Assembly: GCF_036242395.1 (NCBI RefSeq)
Contig: NZ_CP108458.1
Location: 1,302,001-1,366,000 of the forward strand
Direction: 5' to 3'
DNA: 64,000 nt
From: Kitasatospora sp. NBC_01266
Lineage (GTDB): Bacteria > Actinomycetota > Actinomycetes > Streptomycetales > Streptomycetaceae
A model generated the notes under the pieces. It was given only the letters and a program-made list of their open reading frames with translations. It was not told the DNA's origin and did not search any database. Below, piece by piece: positions 40,219 through 50,704 of this stretch (its first letter is position 1; the number at the start of each line of letters is the position of its first letter). A program made the translations under genes and the position numbers.

Positions 40219-41887
40219 TCATGGCCTGGCTCCGCGAGTCACCGGCGTCATGACGGGCCGCCGAACGGGCGGAGCCGGACGGGTGCCGTACTTCGGCGTG
40301 GAGGTGGGATGGAGGAGTTCCTGCAGCGCTCGGCTCGTGGGCGGGCAGGGCTTCTCTCCGAGTTCGCCAAGACTTGAGGTGAGGCGCTCCGTGGTCAGGC
40401 GGACCGCGTCAAGGCGGCCGTGCGCGGCCTGGAGCTGCGCGAGGCGGATGTACAGCTGCTCGTTGTAGCGGTCGATGCCGATGGCCTGGTCCAGGTAGGT
40501 CATCGCACGCTCCGGGTCTTCGGGTGCAGCCGCGGAGGCGAGGGCCCCGAGGGCGTCCAGGGCTCGCCGGCGGAGGTCCTCACGGGCGGGCTCGGCCCAG
40601 TCGTAGGACGCACCCGCGCACAGTTCACCGGTATAGAGGTCGGCGACGCGACGGTGGGCTGCCAGGCGGTCGACCGCGTCGGTGGCGGATGCAGTTGCTC
40701 GGACGGCGTCGTCGAAGTCGGCGAGGTCGGTGCCGATGAGTTCGTAGTTGATGTGCGACAGATCGCCGGTCGTGAGGATGCCGTTGACCGATGTAGTCGC
40801 GGCCAGCGCCTGGCGCAGGGCGGTGCGGACGCTGGTCTTCGCAGTGTTGAAGGCCTGGGTCGCCGCCTGCGGCGTGCGCTCCGGCCAGATGGCTTCGAGG
40901 ATCGCTTCCTTGGTCACCGGATGTGGGTGGACCGCGAGGTAGGCCAGCAGCTCGCCCGCGTACCCGACCAGGCCGCGCGTGACCGTTTTCCCGTGGACGG
41001 TGACGGTGAGCGGGCCAAGCAAGCGGATCCGGACGGGCCGAGTTCTTTCTCCGCCAGGCACACTCCCCCGGTTCCCACCGGCTTTTTCCATCGGTGACGA
41101 GTTCTCATTCTGGAGCGTTTCAGCTCCCGGGTCTTGCAAACGCTCTGCCTGTCGCTCTGAATTCGCGACGTCGATGGTTTCTGTGTTCTCCGGCGCGACC
41201 GCCGAGGCCGAAGGTCCACTCTCACGGATGTCTGGCGCATTCTCGGCGGGTTCCTGCTGCTCCGCGCCGGTGCCGGCAGGGGATTCTGACTGTGCGGGCT
41301 CCGGAACTAGCTGGAGAAGGATGTCCGCGGCGTCGGCTTTCAGGTGAAAGAGCCGGATCGGCGTTGTGGTGGCGCCGTGCGGCGGTGCGAGCGTGGCGTG
41401 CCCGTCGGCCTGCACGTGGAGCTTCATTGCCTCGTGCATGGGGGCGTCGGCGAGTTGGACCGCGGCCAGCCCGTGTGGTCGGCCGTTACTGAGCACGGCA
41501 CGCAGGCGCAGAGCGTCCTGCTCCTCGACGTGGCCGAGCAGCACCACGATCAGCCGCTGCAAGCCAACGACCTCGGAGGTGCCCGCTTCCTCGCGTCCCC
41601 GGCGGCGTGTCAGGAGCCGTTCATCAACGGCGTCCAGGGCCTGCCGGGCGTCGCGAACGTGTGAGCAGCCGGGCCACGGCTTGCGTGTTCCGAGGGTCGG
41701 AGCAAGGTGGTAGGCGAGCGTGTCGGGGATGATCAGTTCGAGTTCCGCGGGATGGGTGACCGCAGCAGCCAGTAGAGCTCGGGCCGCGTCGTCGGCACCG
41801 GGGCCGCTGAGTGCGAGCAGGCCGGCTGGGTGGCGTGTCAGTAGTTCGAGCAGTCCGAGCTGTAGGGGCCCCCCTCTCTGTCAGCCT
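40219..41887 (-). pseudogene. C-terminal half of LysM-BTAD regulator (split by IS3 element)
   Basis: The open frame runs from the IS boundary to 40219, about 555 codons. Its first part (HPAGLLALSGPGADDAARAL, HPAELELIIPDTLAYHL) is the middle domain of Streptomyces BTAD proteins encoded in Tad loci. The BTAD part follows: an OmpR-like winged helix (VRIRLLGPLTVTVHGKTV, LLAYLAVHPHPVTKEAILEA) and TPR-like BTAD helices (LDALGALASAAAPEDPERAM). The missing N-terminus is at 43377-44562. After precise excision of the IS and one target copy the two halves are out of register by one base, with a GGGGCCCCCC run at 41865-41874 as the likely indel site. Confidence 0.8.
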
Positions 41888-41950
41888 TGGGTGAGACGTC
41901 CCGCTTTGTCGGGTTAGCCTGAGAGGGCCCGAGTAGGAGTTCCACCCCTG

Positions 41951-42334
41951 ATGACCAGCACCAATCCGTCCGCAGCCGACCCGGCTCCCCGGCCGAAGCG
42001 CCGCACGTTCAGTCCCGAGTACAAGCTTCGGATCGTGGCCGAGTACGACGCCGCGCCCGAGGGCGAGAAGGGCGCGGTCCTGCGCCGCGAGCGCCTGTAC
42101 CACTCGCACGTCACCGAGTGGCGGGCCGCGCGCGATGCCGGGGCCCTGGAGAACCTGGTCGACCACCGCACGAGCCCGGCCCGCCCGAAGAAGTCCGCCG
42201 CCGAGGTCGAGAACGAGAAGCTGCGCCGCCAGGTGGAACGGCTGGAGAAGGAACTCGCCCGGAACAAGGCCGCGTTGGAGGTCCTGGGAAAAGCGTCGGC
42301 GCTCTTGGAAATGATCTCCGAGAGCGCGGACTGA
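41951..42334 (+). CDS. IS3-family transposase OrfA
   Basis: A 127-residue protein. The N-terminal HTH_21-type DNA-binding domain (RTFSPEYKLRIVAEYDAAP, LRRERLYHSHVTEWRAARD) is followed by a leucine zipper (VENEKLRRQVERLEKELARN). It binds the IS ends and alone acts as a regulator; with OrfB it forms the transposase. A slippery heptamer near its end allows ribosomes to shift into orfB. Confidence 0.9.
   Translation: MTSTNPSAADPAPRPKRRTFSPEYKLRIVAEYDAAPEGEKGAVLRRERLYHSHVTEWRAARDAGALENLVDHRTSPARPKKSAAEVENEKLRRQVERLEKELARNKAALEVLGKASALLEMISESAD
42286..42292 (+). promoter_or_regulatory. G-GGA-AAA slippery site for -1 programmed frameshift
   Basis: In the orfA frame the codons read ctG-GGA-AAA, an X-XXY-YYZ heptamer. 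A -1 slip gives GGG-AAA-AGC, which enters the orfB frame and continues uninterrupted to 43359. This is how IS3-family elements make the OrfAB fusion transposase. A downstream stimulatory structure was not checked. Confidence 0.7.
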
Positions 42335-43359
42335 GGCACGCCGCCGATCCCGTCGTGGACGAGGCGTTCGCCGCCGTCGAACACGAGCTGGGCGTCACAG
42401 CCGCGTGCCGGCTGACCGGCCGCTCCCGGGCCACCCACTACCGCAGCCTGAAGCCGACGCCCGTGCGCGAGCCAAGGTCGCCGCAGGTCCAGCCGTCGGC
42501 CCTGACGGCCGAAGAGCGTGACGCGGTAATGGAGTTGATGAACAGCCCCGAGTACGCCGAGCTGGCGCCCGCGCAGATCTGGGCCCGTGAGCTGGACACC
42601 GGGCACTACCACTGCTCGGTCTCCACGATGTACCGGATCCTGCGTGAGCGGGGGCAGTCCGGTGAGCGCCGCCGCCAGGCCACCCACCCGGCCAAGACGG
42701 TGCCCGAACTGGTCGCCGACGGCCCGTCGCAGGTCTTCACCTGGGACATCACCAAAGCGGCCGGCCCAAGCAAGGGCATCTGGTACCACGCCTACGTCAT
42801 CATCGACATCTTCAGCCGCTACATCGTCGGCCACACCGTCGAGGCGGCCGAATCAGCCGAGCGAGCCGAGGAGTTGATCCGCGACACCATCACGCGCAAC
42901 GGCATCGTCCCCGAGACCGTGCACGCCGACCGCGGCACCTCCATGACCTCCAAGAAGGTCTCCCAGCTGCTGATCGACCTCGGCGTCACCAGAAGCCATT
43001 CGCGCCCGAAGGTCTCCAACGACAACCCCTACAGCGAAGCCCAGTTCAAGACCACCAAGTACATGTCCGACTATCCCGAACGGTTCGAATCCCTGGCCCA
43101 CGCCCGCGAATGGTTCGACGCCTTCATCTCGTACTACAACCACGAGCACAGGCACTCAGGCATCGGACTACACACGCCCGCCAGCGTCCACTTCGGCACC
43201 GCCGAGGAGATCCGCGACCAGCGGGCCGTCACCCTCGCCGAGGCCTACACACGCCACCCCGAACGCTTCGGCCGCCGCCCCAGACCACCCGAGATCCCGA
43301 AGACAGCGTGGATCAACGACCCCGCCAAGCGCAGGGAACCCGCACCACAAACCTCATAG
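42292..43359 (+). CDS. IS3-family transposase OrfB (DDE catalytic part)
   Basis: About 355 residues read in the -1 frame after orfA. The rve integrase core has D (VFTWDITKAAG), D (VHADRGTSM) and a glutamate in NPYSEAQFKTTKYM, the D-D-E triad. An upstream HTH_21-like segment (YAELAPAQIWARELDTGHYH) and the C-terminal FISYYNHEHRHSGIG are typical. It may start at a GTG within this region for OrfB alone, but the fusion is the active transposase. Confidence 0.9.
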   Translation, partial: SVGALGNDLRERGLRHAADPVVDEAFAAVEHELGVTAACRLTGRSRATHYRSLKPTPVREPRSPQVQPSALTAEERDAVMELMNSPEYAELAPAQIWARELDTGHYHCSVSTMYRILRERGQSGERRRQATHPAKTVPELVADGPSQVFTWDITKAAGPSKGIWYHAYVIIDIFSRYIVGHTVEAAESAERAEELIRDTITRNGIVPETVHADRGTSMTSKKVSQLLIDLGVTRSHSRPKVSNDNPYSEAQFKTTKYMSDYPERFESLAHAREWFDAFISYYNHEHRHSGIGLHTPASVHFGTAEEIRDQRAVTLAEAYTRHPERFGRRPRPPEIPKTAWINDPAKRREPAPQTS

Positions 43360-43376
43360 CGTCACGACCGTCTCAC

Positions 43377-44562
43377 TGGACTTGAAATCTTCCGCCCGGG
43401 TGCCGATCGGCGTGTCGTCCAGAGGCGCAGATGCTGCGTCGCCCGAGCGGAGGCGACTGATGCGCCGCAGGGAAGCTGTGAGCGTGGCCTCCTCCGGCCG
43501 CGTTTCCTTCGGGTGCCCGGCCGGGCCGATCCGCCCGGGCTGGTAGGTGCGTCGGCGGTAGAGGGTTCGTGCCACAGCAGCGGCGCTGAGGGCGATACCG
43601 ACGGAGAGCGCCAGATAGCCAGCACCTGCGGGGAGTTCGAGGCCGGGTGGTGCTGCGTGGACGGCTGCCGGAGTCGTCGGCGCCGGCTTGGCGGTGGGAG
43701 CCGCCGCGGGTGGCCGCGGTCCCGGCAGAGGCGCCTTGGGGGCTGGGCGACTTGGCGGTGCCGGTGGCACTGCTGCTGGTGCCGGCGGCTGGGTGCTACG
43801 GCTGGCCACAGGCCCTGACGGGGCTGCGGCATTTGGCTCGGGCTTTACGACACCGGCGGCGGGGAGAAGGAAGATCCAGCCAGGCCGAATGGTGTCAGGG
43901 TCGGCGAGTCGGCTGCCGTCGCCTTGTGCCCGACCACTGTTGAGCTGGTAGATCTCCTTCCAGCGCAGCGGGTTGCCGAGGTGGCGCTCCGCGAGGTCCC
44001 ACAGGGTGTCACCGGGGAGCACCTCGCATGTCGCGTTGGTGCTGTTGCTCTCGACGCGGACGGCCTTGACGGTCGGTGCCGGGCTCGCTGTGGCGGCTAC
44101 GGGCGCGGCGGTGAAGGTCAGCGGGGAGGCGGCGGCAGAGCCCGCTGTCGGCCGTAGCAGGGTGAGGAGGCCGAGAACGACGCTGATGACCAGGGCGCCA
44201 GTGAGCGTGCGGCGTACACGAAGGATGGGTGGCTGCTCCCCTGGTCCAGCACGCAGGAGCTGCGGCAGGCGAGCTACGCACCATGCCACTTCGTACAGGG
44301 TCTGCCCGCAGATCAACAGCCACAGTGCCCACCCGACGAGGACCAGCATCCGCATGAGCGTAAAGAGCGAGACTCCGCCGGTCAGTTCGGCGCTGAGCTC
44401 GCCCCAGGTCGGCACATGGGTGAGGTCCAAGGGCTCAGCGCACCAGGTGAGAGCGCATGGGAGCCCGACGACGAGCGCAGCGAGGGCGACGCCGGCGGCG
44501 AGCGCGCGACCGAGCGCTCGGAGGCGATCGAAGCGCGGGAGGCGGGTGGTCTTGCGGGTCAC
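43377..44562 (-). pseudogene. N-terminal half of LysM-BTAD regulator (split by IS3 element)
   Basis: The GTG at 44562 overlaps the upstream TadG-like stop (GTGA). Three membrane helices (residues ~15-115: LAAGVALAALVVGLPCALTW, LFTLMRMLVLVGWALWLLIC, GALVISVVLGLLTLLRPTAG) precede a LysM peptidoglycan-binding domain at ~180-230 (CEVLPGDTLWDLAERHLGN, WKEIYQLNSGRAQGDGSRL). A Pro-rich linker and another helix (GAGYLALSVGIALSAAAVAR) follow. The frame is cut after RAEDFKS by the IS and ends with 6 foreign residues at 43354. Loss of the BTAD half separates the wall-sensing part from the DNA-binding part. Confidence 0.82.
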
Positions 44563-44999
44563 GGTGTGCCGTCTCGCCAGGCGGCATGGGCGGTTGCGGT
44601 GGCGGTGACGTGCAGCGAGGTAACGCCGACGAGGGAGAGGAGTTGGGTGCGCTGGGTGTGTTCGACGGTGACCGTGACCTCATCCGCCGTGGCGTTGACC
44701 CGGCCCTGGGCACCTGCTGCGTCGAGGTAGTTGGTGGCGGCGTTCTGTGCGGCGTCGGGTCCGAGATCGATGGTGTGGTCGGTCCGGAGACGGTCGAGGT
44801 CGAGGTGGCGTGCTCCCGCTCGGGCGGCTTCCTGGGCTTCGCCGGCGGCTTGGACCTTGGCGGCCAGGGCGAGTCCGCCGTCGGCGACCAGACCGAGGAG
44901 TGCGATCAATGCGGCGATGATGGTGACGGTGAAGGCTGTGACCGATCCTTCGTCACCCGCTCTGCCGACAGCAGCGTCCGGCAGCGGCTCGGGAGTCAT
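44559..44999 (-). CDS. TadG/TadE-like pilus assembly protein
   Basis: A 146-residue protein with a short cytoplasmic lead and one membrane helix (SVTAFTVTIIAALIALLGLV, then ADGGLALAAK). The Glu-type pseudopilin start has diverged. The exported part is Ala/Thr-rich, typical of TadE/G-type minor pseudopilins. It overlaps the LysM gene on one side and the TadE gene on the other (ATGA). It would be part of the Tad pilus base or tip. Confidence 0.75.
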   Translation of the reverse strand: MTPEPLPDAAVGRAGDEGSVTAFTVTIIAALIALLGLVADGGLALAAKVQAAGEAQEAARAGARHLDLDRLRTDHTIDLGPDAAQNAATNYLDAAGAQGRVNATADEVTVTVEHTQRTQLLSLVGVTSLHVTATATAHAAWRDGTP

Positions 45000-45427
45000 G
45001 GCGTGTCCGAGGTGTAGGTGTCCAAGGGAGCGGTGAACGCTGCGGTGATCGTCTGATGACCGGGCAGCGGGACAGCTGAGAGATCGGCGAGCGCGACCGT
45101 GCAGCTGACCGTGACCACGACCTGGCCGCCGGGGTGGAAGGCGTCCGTGTCAACGTTCGTCTCGGGCTGGGGGCAGGACGTTCCCGCCTGCGACAGGGCC
45201 TCGTTCGCCATCTGCTGCCCCGCGCCGCGCGCTTCGTCGAAGCTGCGAGCGCGTGAGGCTGCCCGTGCGGCCTGGTGGGCCGCGTCCTCGACGTCGAGGC
45301 GGGCTCCGGCCAACCGACCCACACCAACCGCCAGCAGCACCAACGTGATGAGCAACGGGGTGATCAGCGTCAGCTCGACGGAGACCGAGCCGCGGTCCTT
45401 CGCTCGTTCGTCGTCGCGAGCCCACAT
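44996..45427 (-). CDS. TadE-like minor pseudopilin
   Basis: A 143-residue protein. RGSVSVELTLITPLLITLVL carries the TadE signature: S-V-E-x-x-x-x-x-P preceding a hydrophobic helix, with Glu at +5 of the processed form. Residues after the helix (VGRLAGARLDVEDAAHQAAR) are amphipathic. It overlaps the TadG-like gene by ATGA. Confidence 0.82.
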   Translation of the reverse strand: MWARDDERAKDRGSVSVELTLITPLLITLVLLAVGVGRLAGARLDVEDAAHQAARAASRARSFDEARGAGQQMANEALSQAGTSCPQPETNVDTDAFHPGGQVVVTVSCTVALADLSAVPLPGHQTITAAFTAPLDTYTSDTP

Positions 45428-45457: not shown

Positions 45458-45877
45458 TCAGCCGTCGGCTGCTGGTCCGGTGAGCTGCTCGACCGGGCCT
45501 GCCGCGTGGGCGCTGACGTCCAGGCGTAGGTAGGGCAGGAGTTCGATGACGTGTCCGTGCACCTCCGCCGTGGCCGTGGTAGCTGTCCGCTCGACGATGA
45601 CGGAGGTCTGCTGGAGGCTGGCGGAGTCGATCTGCCGCAGTAGTTCCTCACCGGCGCGTTGACCGGTGGCGGTGTCGGCGTTCTGAGTGCGGGCCGCTGC
45701 TACCGCCTGGGCTGCGGCCGCCTGCGCGATGTGGTGAGCGTGTGACGCGAGAGCGAACTGCACGATCGCCATGAGCAGGAGGAGCAGCAGTGAAGTGGCG
45801 ATGACCAGCTCAGGGCTCGCCGATCCCTGATCGCCTGGGCGCCTCCGCTGCTTGTCCGCAGAGGAATTGGTGACCAT
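45458..45877 (-). CDS. TadE-like minor pseudopilin (second)
   Basis: A 139-residue protein. DQGSASPELVIATSLLLLLL has the Glu of the TadE type followed by a hydrophobic helix (MAIVQFALASHAHHIAQAAA). The exported portion (SLQQTSVIVERTATTATAEV) is beta-rich. It is the third TadE/G-like subunit in a row and is separated from Flp by 9 bp. Confidence 0.8.
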   Translation of the reverse strand: MVTNSSADKQRRRPGDQGSASPELVIATSLLLLLLMAIVQFALASHAHHIAQAAAAQAVAAARTQNADTATGQRAGEELLRQIDSASLQQTSVIVERTATTATAEVHGHVIELLPYLRLDVSAHAAGPVEQLTGPAADG

Positions 45878-45886
45878 GACGGCGCG

Positions 45887-46099
45887 TCAGAAGTTGAGCG
45901 AGTTGGCTTTGTCGGCGACCTTGGCGGCAAGGATGCCGAGTGCTGCGATCCCCATGAGGACCAGAAGGGCCGTGATCACCACGGTTTCGGTGGTGTAGCC
46001 GGCGTCGGGTTCGCGGCGCATGGCCTCCAGCCGGTCGGCGAGGTGCTGGCGGGTGCGGGTCCAGACGAGGTGGATCTTAATGGTGAGGTCGGTCCTCAT
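45887..46099 (-). CDS. flp: Flp-type pilin
   Basis: A 70-residue protein with basic N-terminus (LDRLEAMRREPDAGYTTETV in part) and a single hydrophobic helix (VVITALLVLMGIAALGILAA) after the G-x-x-T-x-E-type processing region (DAGYTTETV). This fits a short Flp major pilin. The prepilin peptidase was not seen in the window, so it must be encoded elsewhere. Confidence 0.75.
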   Translation of the reverse strand: MRTDLTIKIHLVWTRTRQHLADRLEAMRREPDAGYTTETVVITALLVLMGIAALGILAAKVADKANSLNF

Positions 46100-46132: not shown

Positions 46133-47017
46133 CTAGAGGCCGGTGAGGGCGTGGGTGATGGCGGGGTAACCGAGGAAGAGGAGGAATCCGCCGAAGAGGG
46201 TGACCACCGGCAGGCTCATCCGCTCGGTGGCGGACGCGGCGTCTGACTCCGCTTCGGCCAGCAGGTGGCCGCGCAGCGTGGCGGCTTTCGTGGCCAGGGA
46301 GTTCTTCACCCGCGCACCTTCGCTACCGGCCAGCGCCGCGGTGGCGGCGAGTTCGCCCAGCTCGGTGACGCCGAGCTGAGATCCGAGTTCGCCCAGCGGC
46401 CCCCATGCCGCGGTACGGGTGAGGTCAGCCTTCTGCAGCGCGCGACGGAAGGCCGCGAAGCCGACTCCGTGACCTGCCGAGGCCGCGGCGGTGAGCGCCT
46501 GCTCGACGCCGGCGCCGCCGGAGAGCGCGACGACGGTGAGGTCCAGCATGACCGACAAGGCGTGACGGACCTCCGCCCGCCGCTCGGAAGCCTTCTGGCG
46601 AACAATCAGGTCAGGGGCGAAGGACAGCGCACCGCCGAGGACCAGGCTGCCCCAGACCGGTAGGACCCAGCCGATACGCACACCGGCCAGCGCCGTGAGC
46701 GCGGCGAACAGCACAGGCATCACCAGGCCAGCCACGGCCGCGGTGGTCTTCTCCGCGAGGTGCCGCTCCACAGGGATCCCCAGCGTGCGCAGGTCAGCTG
46801 CCGTCTTGGCGCCAGGGAACCGGCACCGTTGCCACAGCGGTACGGACGCGGCCCCGGCCCGGGCCGCCCAGCCTGCTTCAACGTCCGTTGGCGACGGCGG
46901 CAGGGCTACCGCCGGGGCGAGGGCATCGGCGAGGTCCTCACGAGGCGGGCGCACACCGCGCCAGAACGTCCAGGCCCCGGCGCCGAACCCGGCGCCGCAC
47001 AGCACAGCGGTGATCAC
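46133..47017 (-). CDS. tadC: TadC-like inner-membrane platform protein
   Basis: A 294-residue protein with N-terminal helix (MITAVLCGAGFGAGAWTFW), a T2SS-F domain (EVRHALSVMLDLTVVALSGG, AGVEQALTAAASAG) and a C-terminal helix (LPVVTLFGGFLLFLGYPAI). TadC pairs with TadB as the membrane platform that receives pilin subunits. ATG 47017 overlaps the tadB stop by ATGA. Confidence 0.85.
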   Translation of the reverse strand: MITAVLCGAGFGAGAWTFWRGVRPPREDLADALAPAVALPPSPTDVEAGWAARAGAASVPLWQRCRFPGAKTAADLRTLGIPVERHLAEKTTAAVAGLVMPVLFAALTALAGVRIGWVLPVWGSLVLGGALSFAPDLIVRQKASERRAEVRHALSVMLDLTVVALSGGAGVEQALTAAASAGHGVGFAAFRRALQKADLTRTAAWGPLGELGSQLGVTELGELAATAALAGSEGARVKNSLATKAATLRGHLLAEAESDAASATERMSLPVVTLFGGFLLFLGYPAITHALTGL

Positions 47018-47886
47018 GTGCTCTCCTGCGACACCTGGGACGCGGCAAGCAGCCGGGCGGGTTCGGTGAAGGTCGCGATCTTGCGAAGCCAGGCGAAGGC
47101 CGCCGCGAACATCCCGCCCACGAGCAGCAGCACGAACTGCCCTTGCGCGGTGTCGAATGGCCGCAGGTAGTCCCGGTTCAGCAGGACCAGGCCCATCGCC
47201 ATGGCCAGCGTCGTGCCGACGACGATCCGCACCGAGGTCCGGACCCGGGCTCGTGAGGAGGCGGTGCGGGTGCGCATCTGCGCCTGCTCCCGGGCCGAGG
47301 CCGCGAGTCCGGCAAGCAGGTCACCGAGCCGACCGCTCTGGCGGCCGGCGGCGCCGAGGAGGGCCAGGACCACCAGGTCGCCGAGCGGGTCCGCCAGGCC
47401 GGCCGCGAGCTCGCGCAGCGCTTCCGGCAGGCGCTGTCCGCGCCGGATCCGCTCGGCCAGCGCGGCAACTTCCTTTCGCACGGGCAGCGGAGCCGTCGCG
47501 GCAGTGGCGAGGAGCGCCTGTTCGAGTCCGGCGGCCGCGCTGAGTGTGTCGCGTAGCTGCTCGGTCCAGGAGGCGATGGCCTCGATCCGATCGATGGCCT
47601 GCTGTCCTCTGCGGTCGCGTCCGAGCAGCCCGGGCAGCGCCCACGCGGCCAGCGCGGCGAGTGGTGCCGACACCGGCCAACCGGTCAAAGCGACCGCTCC
47701 CGCGGCAACCACGACAGCTCCCCCAATGCGACGGCCCGGGCGCGCCGGACGGACGCGCTGCCACCAGCTTGTGCCCCAGTCGGGCGTGCTGCTGGGTTCC
47801 CCAGGCCGGAGTCCCGAGTAGGCCGTGCAGGCTCCGGCGCCGAAGCCGGCTCCCAGCAGGGAGACGAAGGCCAGGTGCGCGCTCAT
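47014..47886 (-). CDS. tadB: TadB-like inner-membrane platform protein
   Basis: A 290-residue protein. Membrane helices at the start (MSAHLAFVSLLGAGFGAGAC) and around 55-85, a T2SS-F domain (LRDTLSAAAGLEQALLATAA, GDLVVLALLGAAGRQSGRLG) and terminal helices (SVRIVVGTTLAMAMGLVLL). The start ATG at 47886 is used because it overlaps the CpaF stop by ATGA; the longer frame to 48336 is antisense to CpaF sequence. Confidence 0.84.
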   Translation of the reverse strand: MSAHLAFVSLLGAGFGAGACTAYSGLRPGEPSSTPDWGTSWWQRVRPARPGRRIGGAVVVAAGAVALTGWPVSAPLAALAAWALPGLLGRDRRGQQAIDRIEAIASWTEQLRDTLSAAAGLEQALLATAATAPLPVRKEVAALAERIRRGQRLPEALRELAAGLADPLGDLVVLALLGAAGRQSGRLGDLLAGLAASAREQAQMRTRTASSRARVRTSVRIVVGTTLAMAMGLVLLNRDYLRPFDTAQGQFVLLLVGGMFAAAFAWLRKIATFTEPARLLAASQVSQEST

Positions 47887-49208
47887 TCCGACCACCCACC
47901 GAAGCCGGCCGCCACCGGCGGCAGGAAACCGGTCGCTTCGAGTTCCGCAACGGTCTGCGCTCGAAGGGGCGTGCTGCAGACGGCTCGTCGCTCCGGGCCG
48001 GGACGGTAGACCTCGTTGGAAATAAGCTGGGGCCCGTCGGCTCCGATGATCTCGCGGACCGAGGAGATCGCGCGGCGCCCGCTGGTGTCCCGAGCGAGGT
48101 GGACGACGAAGTGGACGGCGGACGCCACCAGGAGGTTCGTCGCCTCCAGGCTCAGCCGCTCCGGCGCCTGGACGGCGTAGGCGGCCAGCTTGGTGAACAC
48201 GCCTCGGGAGGTGGAGGCGTGGATCGTGGACAGCGAGCCGTCGTTGCCCTGCGACATTGCGTTGCACATCGGCACCACCTCGGCGCCCCTGATCTCCCCG
48301 ACGATCACCCGGTCCGGGGCCATCCGCAGACCCCAACGCACAAGCTCAGCCTGGTCGATCGCGCCCTCGCCCTCGATGTTCGCCTCGCGTGCCTGCATCG
48401 GGACCACGTCCGGGTGCAGTCCGTCCTCGTGCAGACCCAGCTCGTAGGTGTCCTCGATCGTCACCAGCCGCTCGGAGGACGGGATCTCCGACGCGAGCGC
48501 CCGCAACAGCGTGGTCTTGCCCACGTTGGTGCCGCCCGCCACGATGATGTTCTTCCGCGCGAGCACCAGCGCCCGCAGAAGCGACTCCAACTCGGCGTCG
48601 AACACACCGAGCTTCCGCAGCTCAGGCAAGGTGGCCCGCGGGTAGCGGTGGCGGCGGATCGACAGCGAGACCCGGCCGGAGACGGCCATCACCGCGAACA
48701 TCCGCGACCCGTCGGGAAGTTGGACGTTCAGACGCGGCACCGCCCGGTCGAACCGACGCTCCTCGGCGCCACCCCGGGCCGCGATGGTACGGATCAGCTC
48801 CACCAGCTCAGCGTCCGAAGCGGCGATCGGCGCCATCTGCTCCTTCCGCCCGTCGGCATAGCGGACGAACACCCGGTCACACCCGTTCGCGTCGATGTTC
48901 TCAACCTCGCTGTCGTCCAACAGTGCCTGCAGTCCACCCAGCCCGAACAGCGCGTCGTGCGCGGCGCGCACCGCCCGCTCCTCAGCCTCGGCATCCAGCG
49001 CACGGCCCTCCAGCAGAAGCTTCCCGGTGCGCCGCTCCAGGGCCTCGGAGAGCAGCCGCTCGCCAATCGAGCGCCACTGATGCGCCGTCAGCGGCACATC
49101 GCCGTCCGACTCCAGTCGCTGGCTGTGGGCCAAGAGGAGTTGACCGACCTCTACTCGCAGCGTCTCGGCGAGCTCCCGCTCCGCTGTCGCGGAATCCGTC
49201 ATCGTCAT
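47883..49208 (-). CDS. cpaF: CpaF/TadA secretion ATPase
   Basis: A 441-residue ATPase. The N-terminal domain (VENIDANGCDRVFVRYADGR) is followed by Walker A (VAGGTNVGKTTLLRALASEI, about residue 230), the Asp box, and Walker B plus His box (VIVGEIRGAEVVPMCNAM, GNDGSLSTIHASTSRGVFT). It powers pilus extension and retraction at the inner face of the membrane. It overlaps cpaE by ATGA. Confidence 0.92.
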   Translation of the reverse strand: MTMTDSATAERELAETLRVEVGQLLLAHSQRLESDGDVPLTAHQWRSIGERLLSEALERRTGKLLLEGRALDAEAEERAVRAAHDALFGLGGLQALLDDSEVENIDANGCDRVFVRYADGRKEQMAPIAASDAELVELIRTIAARGGAEERRFDRAVPRLNVQLPDGSRMFAVMAVSGRVSLSIRRHRYPRATLPELRKLGVFDAELESLLRALVLARKNIIVAGGTNVGKTTLLRALASEIPSSERLVTIEDTYELGLHEDGLHPDVVPMQAREANIEGEGAIDQAELVRWGLRMAPDRVIVGEIRGAEVVPMCNAMSQGNDGSLSTIHASTSRGVFTKLAAYAVQAPERLSLEATNLLVASAVHFVVHLARDTSGRRAISSVREIIGADGPQLISNEVYRPGPERRAVCSTPLRAQTVAELEATGFLPPVAAGFGGWSE

Positions 49209-50008: not shown

Positions 50009-50704
50009 TCACCTCCCCGCCACTGCGGCGCCGTCAGCCCCCTGCGCGGGCAGCACGACAAGCGCCGGCTCCTGGAGCTGCGCGGCTCGCATCGCGCTGC
50101 CCTGATCGCACAGCACAGTCACCACCACCGTCCCAGCGCCACCAGGCCCCGGACGGGCGTCCAACACGACTCCGCGCACCGATCCCTCGCCCGACCCGGC
50201 CGGTGCTCCGGGTACTGCGGGCTTGGTCTCGGACACCACGACCTGCGCGCCCGGCCCAACCATCGGCGGCACACGGCCACTCTTCAACGACATCGTCGCC
50301 ACCGCCTGCCCGGCACCGGGCACCGCCGAGGCCAGCGCCTCCTCGGAGAGCAGCGCCCCAGCCGGCAGTGCGGATGTCACCGCCCGGCCGACAACCTCCG
50401 TGCGGCGTGAGGCGGCCAGCACGGGGACACCGCTGTGTTCACCGATGCTCACCGTCCGCACGTCGGCGGCTGTCAGCACCTGCCCGAACGCAACAGGCCG
50501 GGCCAGCGCCAGGACGCTCGTCCGACCGCTGGAAGTAATAGCCGTCGCCCAGAAGCCGGCCACCGAAACAACCATCACGCCTGCTCCGGCCAACAGCCGA
50601 AACCGCTGCCGCCGTCGCGCGGCACTCCCCCGCACCCGCGCGGTCGGCCCAGCGCCACTGGGCCTGTCGCTCCGGGCGCCCGGCACCCACGTTGTACTCA
50701 CCAA
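50009..50704 (-). CDS. SAF-domain protein, CpaB/RcpC-like
   Basis: A 231-residue protein. An N-terminal basic start and a membrane helix (LLAGAGVMVVSVAGFWATAI) are followed by a SAF domain (VLALARPVAFGQVLTAADVR, LPAGALLSEEALASAVPGAG) and a beta-rich end. RcpC/CpaB proteins link the Tad machine to the outer layer, in Gram-positives probably to the cell wall. The stop is 6 bp before the cpaE start. Confidence 0.78.
   Translation of the reverse strand: MVSTTWVPGARSDRPSGAGPTARVRGSAARRRQRFRLLAGAGVMVVSVAGFWATAITSSGRTSVLALARPVAFGQVLTAADVRTVSIGEHSGVPVLAASRRTEVVGRAVTSALPAGALLSEEALASAVPGAGQAVATMSLKSGRVPPMVGPGAQVVVSETKPAVPGAPAGSGEGSVRGVVLDARPGPGGAGTVVVTVLCDQGSAMRAAQLQEPALVVLPAQGADGAAVAGR

What the first reader, a model, noticed from the sequence alone, without database searches (positions are those of the whole stretch)
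40219..44562. Membrane LysM-BTAD regulator of a Tad pilus operon split by a recent IS3 insertion
A TGG target duplication, intact 8-bp terminal repeats and complete orfA/orfB show a recent hop. It divides the wall-binding/membrane part from the BTAD DNA-binding part. The joined protein would connect cell-wall sensing with transcription at the end of a pilus operon, an unusual architecture. The halves are also one base out of frame at a GGGGCCCCCC run.
Basis: partly seen in the sequence, partly recalled or inferred. Interest (0 to 1): 0.55.

Follow-up and report, generated by a model that had tools for sequence, protein, structure and literature searches.

The report
Transposon-broken membrane regulator of pilus operon
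In this Kitasatospora-type actinobacterium a jumping gene has recently split the last gene of a Tad pilus operon, a gene that in relatives makes one membrane protein joining a cell-wall-binding domain to a DNA-binding domain.

Summary
An IS3-family element splits a gene at the end of a Tad pilus operon. It is 1523 bp (41872-43394), not 41891-43376: four identical full copies in the genome share the extra end bases, and relatives match it end to end. The target duplication is CCC (GGG, GCT, GTC at the other sites); TGG and the 8-bp "terminal repeats" lie inside the element. GGGGCCCCCC is host GGGG + target CCC + element CCC. The halves stay one base out of register once the element and one CCC are set aside. 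In 29 of 30 Streptomycetaceae loci found with the BTAD half, LysM and BTAD share one open frame behind Tad genes, so the halves are one gene. Its plan: three membrane helices, LysM, a fourth helix, an FtsK/EccC-like domain without Walker A, then an AfsR/EmbR-like winged helix + BTAD. Most likely the intact protein is a membrane-anchored SARP-type activator reading wall or pilus state; this copy is probably inactive. LysM+BTAD in a Tad locus was listed for a P. acnes plasmid in 2013; my searches found no functional study. The insertion is ordinary; the family is moderately interesting.

The parts
41872..43394 (+). IS3-family insertion sequence, 1523 bp, true ends
   Evidence: 4 copies 100% identical over exactly this stretch in the genome; end-to-end matches at 92-95% in six other genomes of the genus; NCBIfam IS3
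41869..41871 (.). target-site duplication CCC, left copy
   Evidence: the other three sites have GGG, GCT, GTC
43395..43397 (.). target-site duplication CCC, right copy
41951..42334 (+). IS orfA (127 aa, HTH_Tnp_1-like, just under Pfam cutoff)
42118..43359 (+). IS orfB (413 aa, rve integrase core, IS3 family), -1 frame relative to orfA
43396..44562 (-). N-terminal half of the broken gene: 389 native codons; the frame then runs 13 codons into the junction and element and stops
43864..44022 (-). LysM domain
   Evidence: Pfam PF01476 residues 181-233
43573..44523 (-). stretch holding the four predicted membrane helices (residues 14-32, 66-84, 118-136, 312-330); LysM lies between the third and fourth
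   Evidence: hydropathy
40219..41871 (-). C-terminal half of the broken gene: 550 stop-free codons, no ATG/GTG/TTG in the first 103
41296..41871 (-). FtsK/EccC-like domain without Walker A motif
   Evidence: profile hit to EccC 4nh0 E 3.9e-6; FtsK 2ius Z 12.4, 185 aligned, rmsd 3.4; no Walker A in 45 rows
40297..41040 (-). winged helix + BTAD (AfsR/EmbR-like)
   Evidence: EmbR E 1.7e-18, AfsR E 1.4e-15; AfsR 8k60_I Z 18.6, 237 aligned, rmsd 4.0
44559..44999 (-). TadG-like
   Evidence: Pfam Tad
44996..45427 (-). TadE-like 2
   Evidence: Pfam TadE
45458..45877 (-). TadE-like 1
   Evidence: Pfam TadE
45887..46099 (-). 70-aa pilin-like protein
   Evidence: position and hydrophobic stretch; no Pfam match; homologue in the operon of all 29 Tad-linked Streptomycetaceae loci
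46133..47017 (-). T2SSF protein (TadC-like)
   Evidence: Pfam T2SSF
47014..47886 (-). T2SSF protein (TadB-like)
   Evidence: Pfam T2SSF; start set at ATG 47886
47883..49208 (-). TadA-like ATPase
   Evidence: Pfam T2SSE 120 bits
49205..50002 (-). TadZ-like by position
   Evidence: no Pfam match; homologues at the same place in relatives whose stretch reaches it
50009..50704 (-). SAF-domain (RcpC/CpaB-like)
   Evidence: Pfam SAF

Best explanation
This is a broken member of a widespread actinobacterial family: the last gene of a Tad pilus operon, encoding a membrane protein with an outward LysM domain and a cytoplasmic winged-helix + BTAD domain. SHOWN by sequence and fold: the order TM-TM-TM-LysM-TM, an FtsK/EccC-like domain without Walker A, then wHTH-BTAD; one open frame in intact relatives; tight linkage to Tad genes; disruption here by a 1523-bp IS3 element with a CCC duplication. 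INFERRED: LysM holds the protein to peptidoglycan or other glycan; the state of the wall, or passage of the pilus through it, is passed through helix 4 and the FtsK-like domain (perhaps an oligomerisation module); the wHTH-BTAD part then binds a promoter near the membrane and recruits RNA polymerase as AfsR does, most likely acting on its own Tad operon. In this strain the DNA-binding half has lost its start, its membrane part and its reading register, so the regulator is very probably null; the genome search found no second copy of the C half.
For: One gene: the halves meet within two residues in 4 of 4 closest homologues; one frame in 29 of 30 BTAD-half loci in Streptomycetaceae, all 29 with a TadG-type gene upstream on the same strand, 504-696 nt from the LysM match. 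Named Actinomycetota: 47 of 51 loci with a wHTH-BTAD match have LysM and BTAD in one frame, 42 of those 47 with a Tad gene. Fold: EmbR and AfsR are the best sequence and structure matches of the DNA-binding part; the arginine at model residue 349, in predicted helix 334-355, is one of three invariant columns in 29 sequences. Topology: positive N terminus, four helices, LysM between helices 3 and 4. Recency: four identical copies; the C half is open over 550 codons while the other five frames hold 8-15 stops. The own-genome search with the C half found, besides itself, three weak partial matches to the BTAD region.
Against: No regulatory target, DNA site or signal was tested. The gene is co-directional with, and overlaps, the pilus genes, as a structural component would. 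Pfam BTAD itself does not pass in the window copy or in G069, though it does in three other homologues. Three Micromonosporaceae-type loci with 7 kb or more upstream (L087, L090, L091) show no Tad gene, so the target need not be the pilus. Three named loci (L092, L113, L124) have LysM and BTAD parts in separate frames. The one-base offset at the junction could mean that the gene was already broken before the insertion. Simple hydropathy finds all four helices in 6 of 16 homologue rows; the others miss one or more at the threshold used.
Confidence: 0.62

Rival explanations
1. The protein is a structural part of the Tad machine rather than a transcription regulator: LysM anchors the pilus base to peptidoglycan or makes a path through the thick wall, and the cytoplasmic FtsK-like and wHTH-BTAD parts are protein-binding scaffolds.
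For: It is last in a tightly overlapping operon of assembly genes, and in 29 of 29 Streptomycetaceae loci with both parts it follows the TadG-type gene; the FtsK/EccC-like fold is typical of secretion machines; the P. acnes homologue was labelled an assembly protein, 'TadB', in the 2013 table.
Against: The winged helix matches DNA-binding activators AfsR and EmbR over both wHTH and BTAD, and its helix arginine is invariant in 29 rows. Relatives in Salinispora, Verrucosispora and Micromonospora (L087, L090, L091) occur without Tad genes in the stretch held.
Confidence: 0.25
2. The gene was already a pseudogene before the element arrived: the one-base offset at the junction is a real older frameshift and the insertion was neutral.
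For: The halves are still out of register after the element and one target copy are set aside.
Against: The offset falls exactly at the insertion point, in a G/C run of which part is the target duplication; both halves are otherwise stop-free over 389 and 550 codons. A run-length sequencing error or slippage at the junction is simpler.
Confidence: 0.2
3. The split leaves two working proteins: a membrane LysM protein and a free, constitutively active wHTH-BTAD activator made from an internal start.
For: The N half stops 13 codons after the last native residue; the translation has methionines further down in the C half.
Against: No start codon in the first 103 codons of the C half and no sigma-70-like promoter match in 41300-44000, a scan that does not cover other promoter types; the element's own genes run in the opposite direction.
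Confidence: 0.1

Closest known systems
PAGK_2369 of the Tad locus on Propionibacterium acnes plasmid pIMPLE-HL096PA1 (PMC3666418, Table 2; passages read)
   Same: Pfam LysM + BTAD in one protein, in a Tad locus of the same gene order (SAF, TadZ, TadA, two T2SSF, small unknown, three TadE, then LysM-BTAD).
   Different: Listed as 'TadB, Flp pilus assembly protein'; the passages read ascribe control of the locus to a sigma and an anti-sigma factor upstream, not to this protein; followed by a further RcpB-like gene; listed with no sign of a break.
AfsR of Streptomyces coelicolor (PDB 8hvr, 8k60)
   Same: wHTH-BTAD fold: E 1.4e-15 by sequence profile, Z 18.6 by structure.
   Different: AfsR carries a different C-terminal half and no LysM or membrane helices (recalled); here the DNA-binding part is C-terminal and tethered to the membrane.
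EmbR of Mycobacterium tuberculosis (PDB 2fez, 2ff4)
   Same: Best sequence match of the wHTH-BTAD part (E 1.7e-18).
   Different: EmbR ends in a phosphopeptide-binding FHA domain (recalled) and has no LysM or membrane part (recalled).
FtsK / EccC motor domains (PDB 2ius, 4nh0, 9jv8)
   Same: Fold of the middle domain (Z 11-12). RadA/Rad51-type chains follow at Z 9-11, so the fold is of the wider P-loop kind.
   Different: No Walker A in any of 45 rows; about 190 residues, embedded in a regulator.
ToxR/CadC-type membrane one-component regulators (recalled, no call)
   Same: Membrane-anchored winged helix with an external sensing part.
   Different: There the DNA-binding domain is N-terminal with a single membrane helix; here it is C-terminal behind four helices, with BTAD and an FtsK-like domain.
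RefSeq names 'LysM peptidoglycan-binding domain-containing protein' / 'BTAD domain-containing putative transcriptional regulator' on actinobacterial plasmids
   Same: Same place at the end of an annotated Tad operon on plasmids of Embleya sp. NBC_00896 and Nocardioides sp. QY071 (the two regions looked at).
   Different: Automatic annotation; no function tested.

Membership tests
IS3 family insertion sequence | IS3-type transposase with rve integrase core | tested here: met
   NCBIfam NF033516 170.6 bits (cutoff 160); Pfam rve 68.4 bits
IS3 family insertion sequence | two overlapping frames, orfB in -1 relative to orfA | tested here: met
   coordinates 41951-42334 and 42118-43359; the frameshift itself was not tested
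IS3 family insertion sequence | short target duplication, 3 bp | tested here: met
   GGG, GCT, CCC, GTC at 4 of 4 full-length copies
IS3 family insertion sequence | terminal inverted repeats | tested here: inconclusive
   true ends only weakly alike; the clear 8-bp repeat lies 18-19 bp inside
SARP/BTAD activators (AfsR, EmbR) | winged helix followed by BTAD helical repeat | tested here: met
   profile E 1.7e-18 and 1.4e-15; model pLDDT mostly over 90 in 281-520; Z 17.6-18.6 over 237-242 residues; Pfam BTAD over cutoff in three of four homologues tested, not in the window copy
SARP/BTAD activators (AfsR, EmbR) | binds promoter repeats and activates transcription | not testable with these tools
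   needs binding and expression assays
LysM-BTAD protein of actinobacterial Tad loci | LysM and BTAD in one reading frame | tested here: not met
   split by the element and one base out of register in the window; met in 29 of 30 Streptomycetaceae loci. The window gene is a broken copy.
LysM-BTAD protein of actinobacterial Tad loci | last gene after TadE/TadG genes | tested here: met
   relatives
FtsK/EccC ATPases | FtsK-like fold | tested here: met
FtsK/EccC ATPases | Walker A motif | tested here: not met
   absent in 45 of 45 rows; two rows, L031 and L083, are the same gene
Tad pilus operon | TadA ATPase, two T2SSF proteins, TadE/TadG | tested here: met
Tad pilus operon | prepilin peptidase TadV and proven Flp pilin | not tested
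   the 70-aa protein at 45887-46099 is pilin-like by place only; the peptidase was not looked for

The most novel reading that the evidence does not exclude
Actinobacterial Tad pili carry their own wall-contact sensor: a single-protein signalling line in which an external LysM domain reads peptidoglycan or pilus passage and an inactive FtsK/EccC-like module inside the cell controls a membrane-tethered SARP-type activator of the pilus operon, with no kinase or second messenger.
Probability: 0.3. Interest if true: 0.7.

Novelty: new variant of a known kind. Interest (0 to 1): 0.4.

Why it matters
The insertion itself is ordinary. What it points to is a broadly conserved protein family, for which my searches found no functional study, that sits at the end of Tad pilus operons in many actinobacteria and joins a wall-binding domain to an AfsR/EmbR-like DNA-binding domain through an FtsK-like module without Walker A. 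If it works as a regulator it would give an opening to how Gram-positive Tad pili are switched on, and a new way of building a membrane-bound SARP-type activator.

Tried and rejected

The search for related loci with the C half alone found no relative; the C half against plasmids gave no match at 1e-5; a 16-row alignment had no stretch usable for patterns. The four closest intact homologues then worked. Pfam BTAD does not pass in the window copy, so profile and fold comparisons were used.

A first count on the named loci with a narrow BTAD profile gave 39 of 42 fused and seemed to leave ten or so Tad loci with LysM but no BTAD. On checking, nine of them were looked at: Pfam reported BTAD in six (over its cutoff in four), and a broader profile found wHTH-BTAD in the same frame in eight and in a separate overlapping frame in the ninth, L124. 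The recount is 47 of 51. Both profiles were built partly from members of the family counted here. Not fused in that recount: L092, L113, L124, L148. LysM loci with a Tad gene but not counted as fused: those first three, L084 and L132 (frames run to a contig end), and L137.

Kitasatospora relative G009 (S. tateyamensis) holds a LysM half and the start of the C half with one in-frame stop close to a contig end; I do not count it as a second broken copy. Literature searches for LysM with BTAD, BTAD with Flp pilus, LysM with SARP/winged helix and Tad pili or tight adherence with Streptomyces gave one relevant table (PMC3666418, passages read). Passages of PMC8213781 name LysM and BTAD as separate shell domains of contractile injection loci. 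In the passages shown of PMC12075869, 'btad' appears as a journal code in a reference. Passages of PMC5696575 and PMC3244431 show no regulator of this kind; the word 'regulator' occurs in neither main text. A split homologue in Catenulispora pinisilvae (L092) breaks inside the middle domain relative to L095, so it is not read as a two-gene arrangement; L113, L124 and L148 were not followed up.
Full report
What is in the sequence. On the minus strand, 50704 to 44559 holds a compact Tad pilus operon: SAF protein, TadZ-like (by place), TadA, two T2SSF proteins, a 70-aa pilin-like protein, two TadE and one TadG-like protein. All nine are stop-free, and five neighbouring pairs, among them TadG/LysM, overlap by 4 bases. 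The next gene starts at 44562 and encodes membrane helices and a LysM domain. It runs into an insertion sequence; beyond the element a stop-free frame of 550 codons follows.

The element. Moving the ends to 41872 and 43394 gives a 1523-bp element, four copies at 100%, each flanked by its own 3-bp duplication: GGG, GCT, CCC and GTC. Copies in six other genomes of the genus at 92-95% identity match exactly from base 1 to 1523; more diverged full-length copies (76-90%) are listed too. OrfB belongs to the IS3 family. A fifth, partial copy covers the last 627 bp at 99.8%.

The frame offset. The GGGGCCCCCC run is host GGGG, target CCC and element CCC. When the element and one CCC are set aside, the N-half frame and C-half frame still differ by one base. 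In relatives the two halves follow each other within two residues: residue 389 of the N half (390 in G069) and residue 4 of the C half (7 in G069) in 4 of 4 closest homologues. A run-length error in sequencing, slippage, or an older indel would each explain the offset; nothing here decides between them.

One gene, not two. Searching 394 Streptomycetaceae genomes, drawn from a larger group, with the C half gave 28 with a match at 1e-20, the window's own included. The 30 other gene places listed were all fetched. In 29 of 30 the LysM half and BTAD half lie in one open frame (repeated with single-domain profiles whose 16 rows come from this set). All 29 have a TadG-type match upstream on the same strand, 504-696 nt from the LysM match, and 28 show TadA upstream; the remaining stretch, L068, begins inside the operon. 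The exception, L081, has only a BTAD part and no Tad genes.

A second, named set was found through LysM-region patterns (best 80 of 203 kept). With a broad profile, 51 of its 80 loci hold a wHTH-BTAD match and 47 of these have it in one frame with LysM; 42 of the 47 show some Tad gene and 36 TadA+T2SSF+TadE. Of the five without, L085 and L152 have under 2 kb upstream, so nothing follows from them; L087, L090 and L091 (Salinispora, Verrucosispora, Micromonospora) have 7 kb or more. Not in one frame: L092, L113, L124, L148. This set was chosen by LysM patterns and the profiles were built partly from it, so its fusion rate is biased; the first set was not chosen for LysM or Tad. In the genus all 70 genomes have TadE genes, but 5 of 70 have the C-half match at 1e-20, plus one cut by a contig end. 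It therefore marks one type of Tad locus rather than Tad in general.

What the protein is. Hydropathy gives helices at 14-32, 66-84, 118-136 and 312-330, with LysM at 181-233 between the third and fourth and arginines after the fourth; with the positive N terminus inside, LysM is outside and the C half inside (inference). The same simple threshold finds all four helices in 6 of 16 homologue rows. A model of the C half (mean pLDDT 79.9, pTM 0.53) shows two good domains and a low-confidence linker. Residues 278-525 match AfsR (8k60_I Z 18.6, 237 aligned, rmsd 4.0) and EmbR (Z 17.8), in line with profile hits at 1.7e-18 (EmbR) and 1.4e-15 (AfsR). Residues 1-192 match FtsK (Z 12.4, 185 aligned, rmsd 3.4) and ESX EccC domains, but no Walker A motif is present in 45 rows. 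Three columns are invariant in the 29-row alignment, one of them the arginine at 349 in the predicted third helix of the winged helix.

How it probably works. The most economical reading is a membrane-tethered activator of the SARP type whose external LysM reads the wall, with its own pilus operon as the likely target. Domain order and linkage are shown; topology, wall sensing, oligomerisation through the FtsK-like domain, and the target are inferred. The main rival is a structural role at the pilus base. In this strain the C half has no start codon in its first 103 codons, no sigma-70-type promoter match upstream, and the own-genome search with the C half found otherwise only three weak partial BTAD matches, so function is very probably lost.

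Known or new. Organism: contigs of two genus mates proved identical to Kitasatospora sp. MAP5-34 and Streptomyces tateyamensis records, so the host is Kitasatospora-type. LysM+BTAD in a Tad locus was listed in 2013 for P. acnes plasmid protein PAGK_2369, in the same gene order (PMC3666418, passages read), and RefSeq names such proteins at the end of Tad operons on two plasmids that I looked at. My text searches found no functional study. The FtsK-like middle domain was not mentioned in the passages I read.

Noticed in passing
G000 (window's genome) C1:164117-165639, 3098653-3100175, 6342180-6343702, 7924936-7925562: Three more identical full copies and one partial copy of the IS3 element; whether they break genes was not checked.
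   Followed up: partly
G069:C2:465878-467400: The closest relative with an intact LysM-BTAD gene (match to C2:462846) has a 92% identical copy of the same IS about 3 kb downstream of that gene.
   Followed up: no
L085, L087, L090, L091: In Salinispora, Verrucosispora and Micromonospora a LysM-BTAD gene lies near a second frame with wHTH-BTAD homology and without Tad genes in the stretch held, which suggests a paralogous use outside pili.
   Followed up: no
G000 C1:7171015-7171131: A TadE match outside the window, perhaps part of the Tad-type locus common to the genus (TadE in 70 of 70 genomes).
   Followed up: no
L174 (Nocardioides sp. QY071 plasmid pCHL): A Tad + LysM operon on a plasmid a few kb from predicted resistance genes; the Tessaracoccus homologue matched 210 plasmid records.
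   Followed up: no
L082 8880-9146 (S. tateyamensis): The relative's LysM-BTAD frame shows one in-frame stop just before the contig end; could be a contig-end error or a second broken copy.
   Followed up: partly
L100, L101, L106 and other loci outside Streptomycetaceae: Many members carry two LysM matches in a row instead of one.
   Followed up: no
L113, L124: Tad loci with LysM and wHTH-BTAD in separate frames; frameshift or truly separate genes not decided.
   Followed up: no
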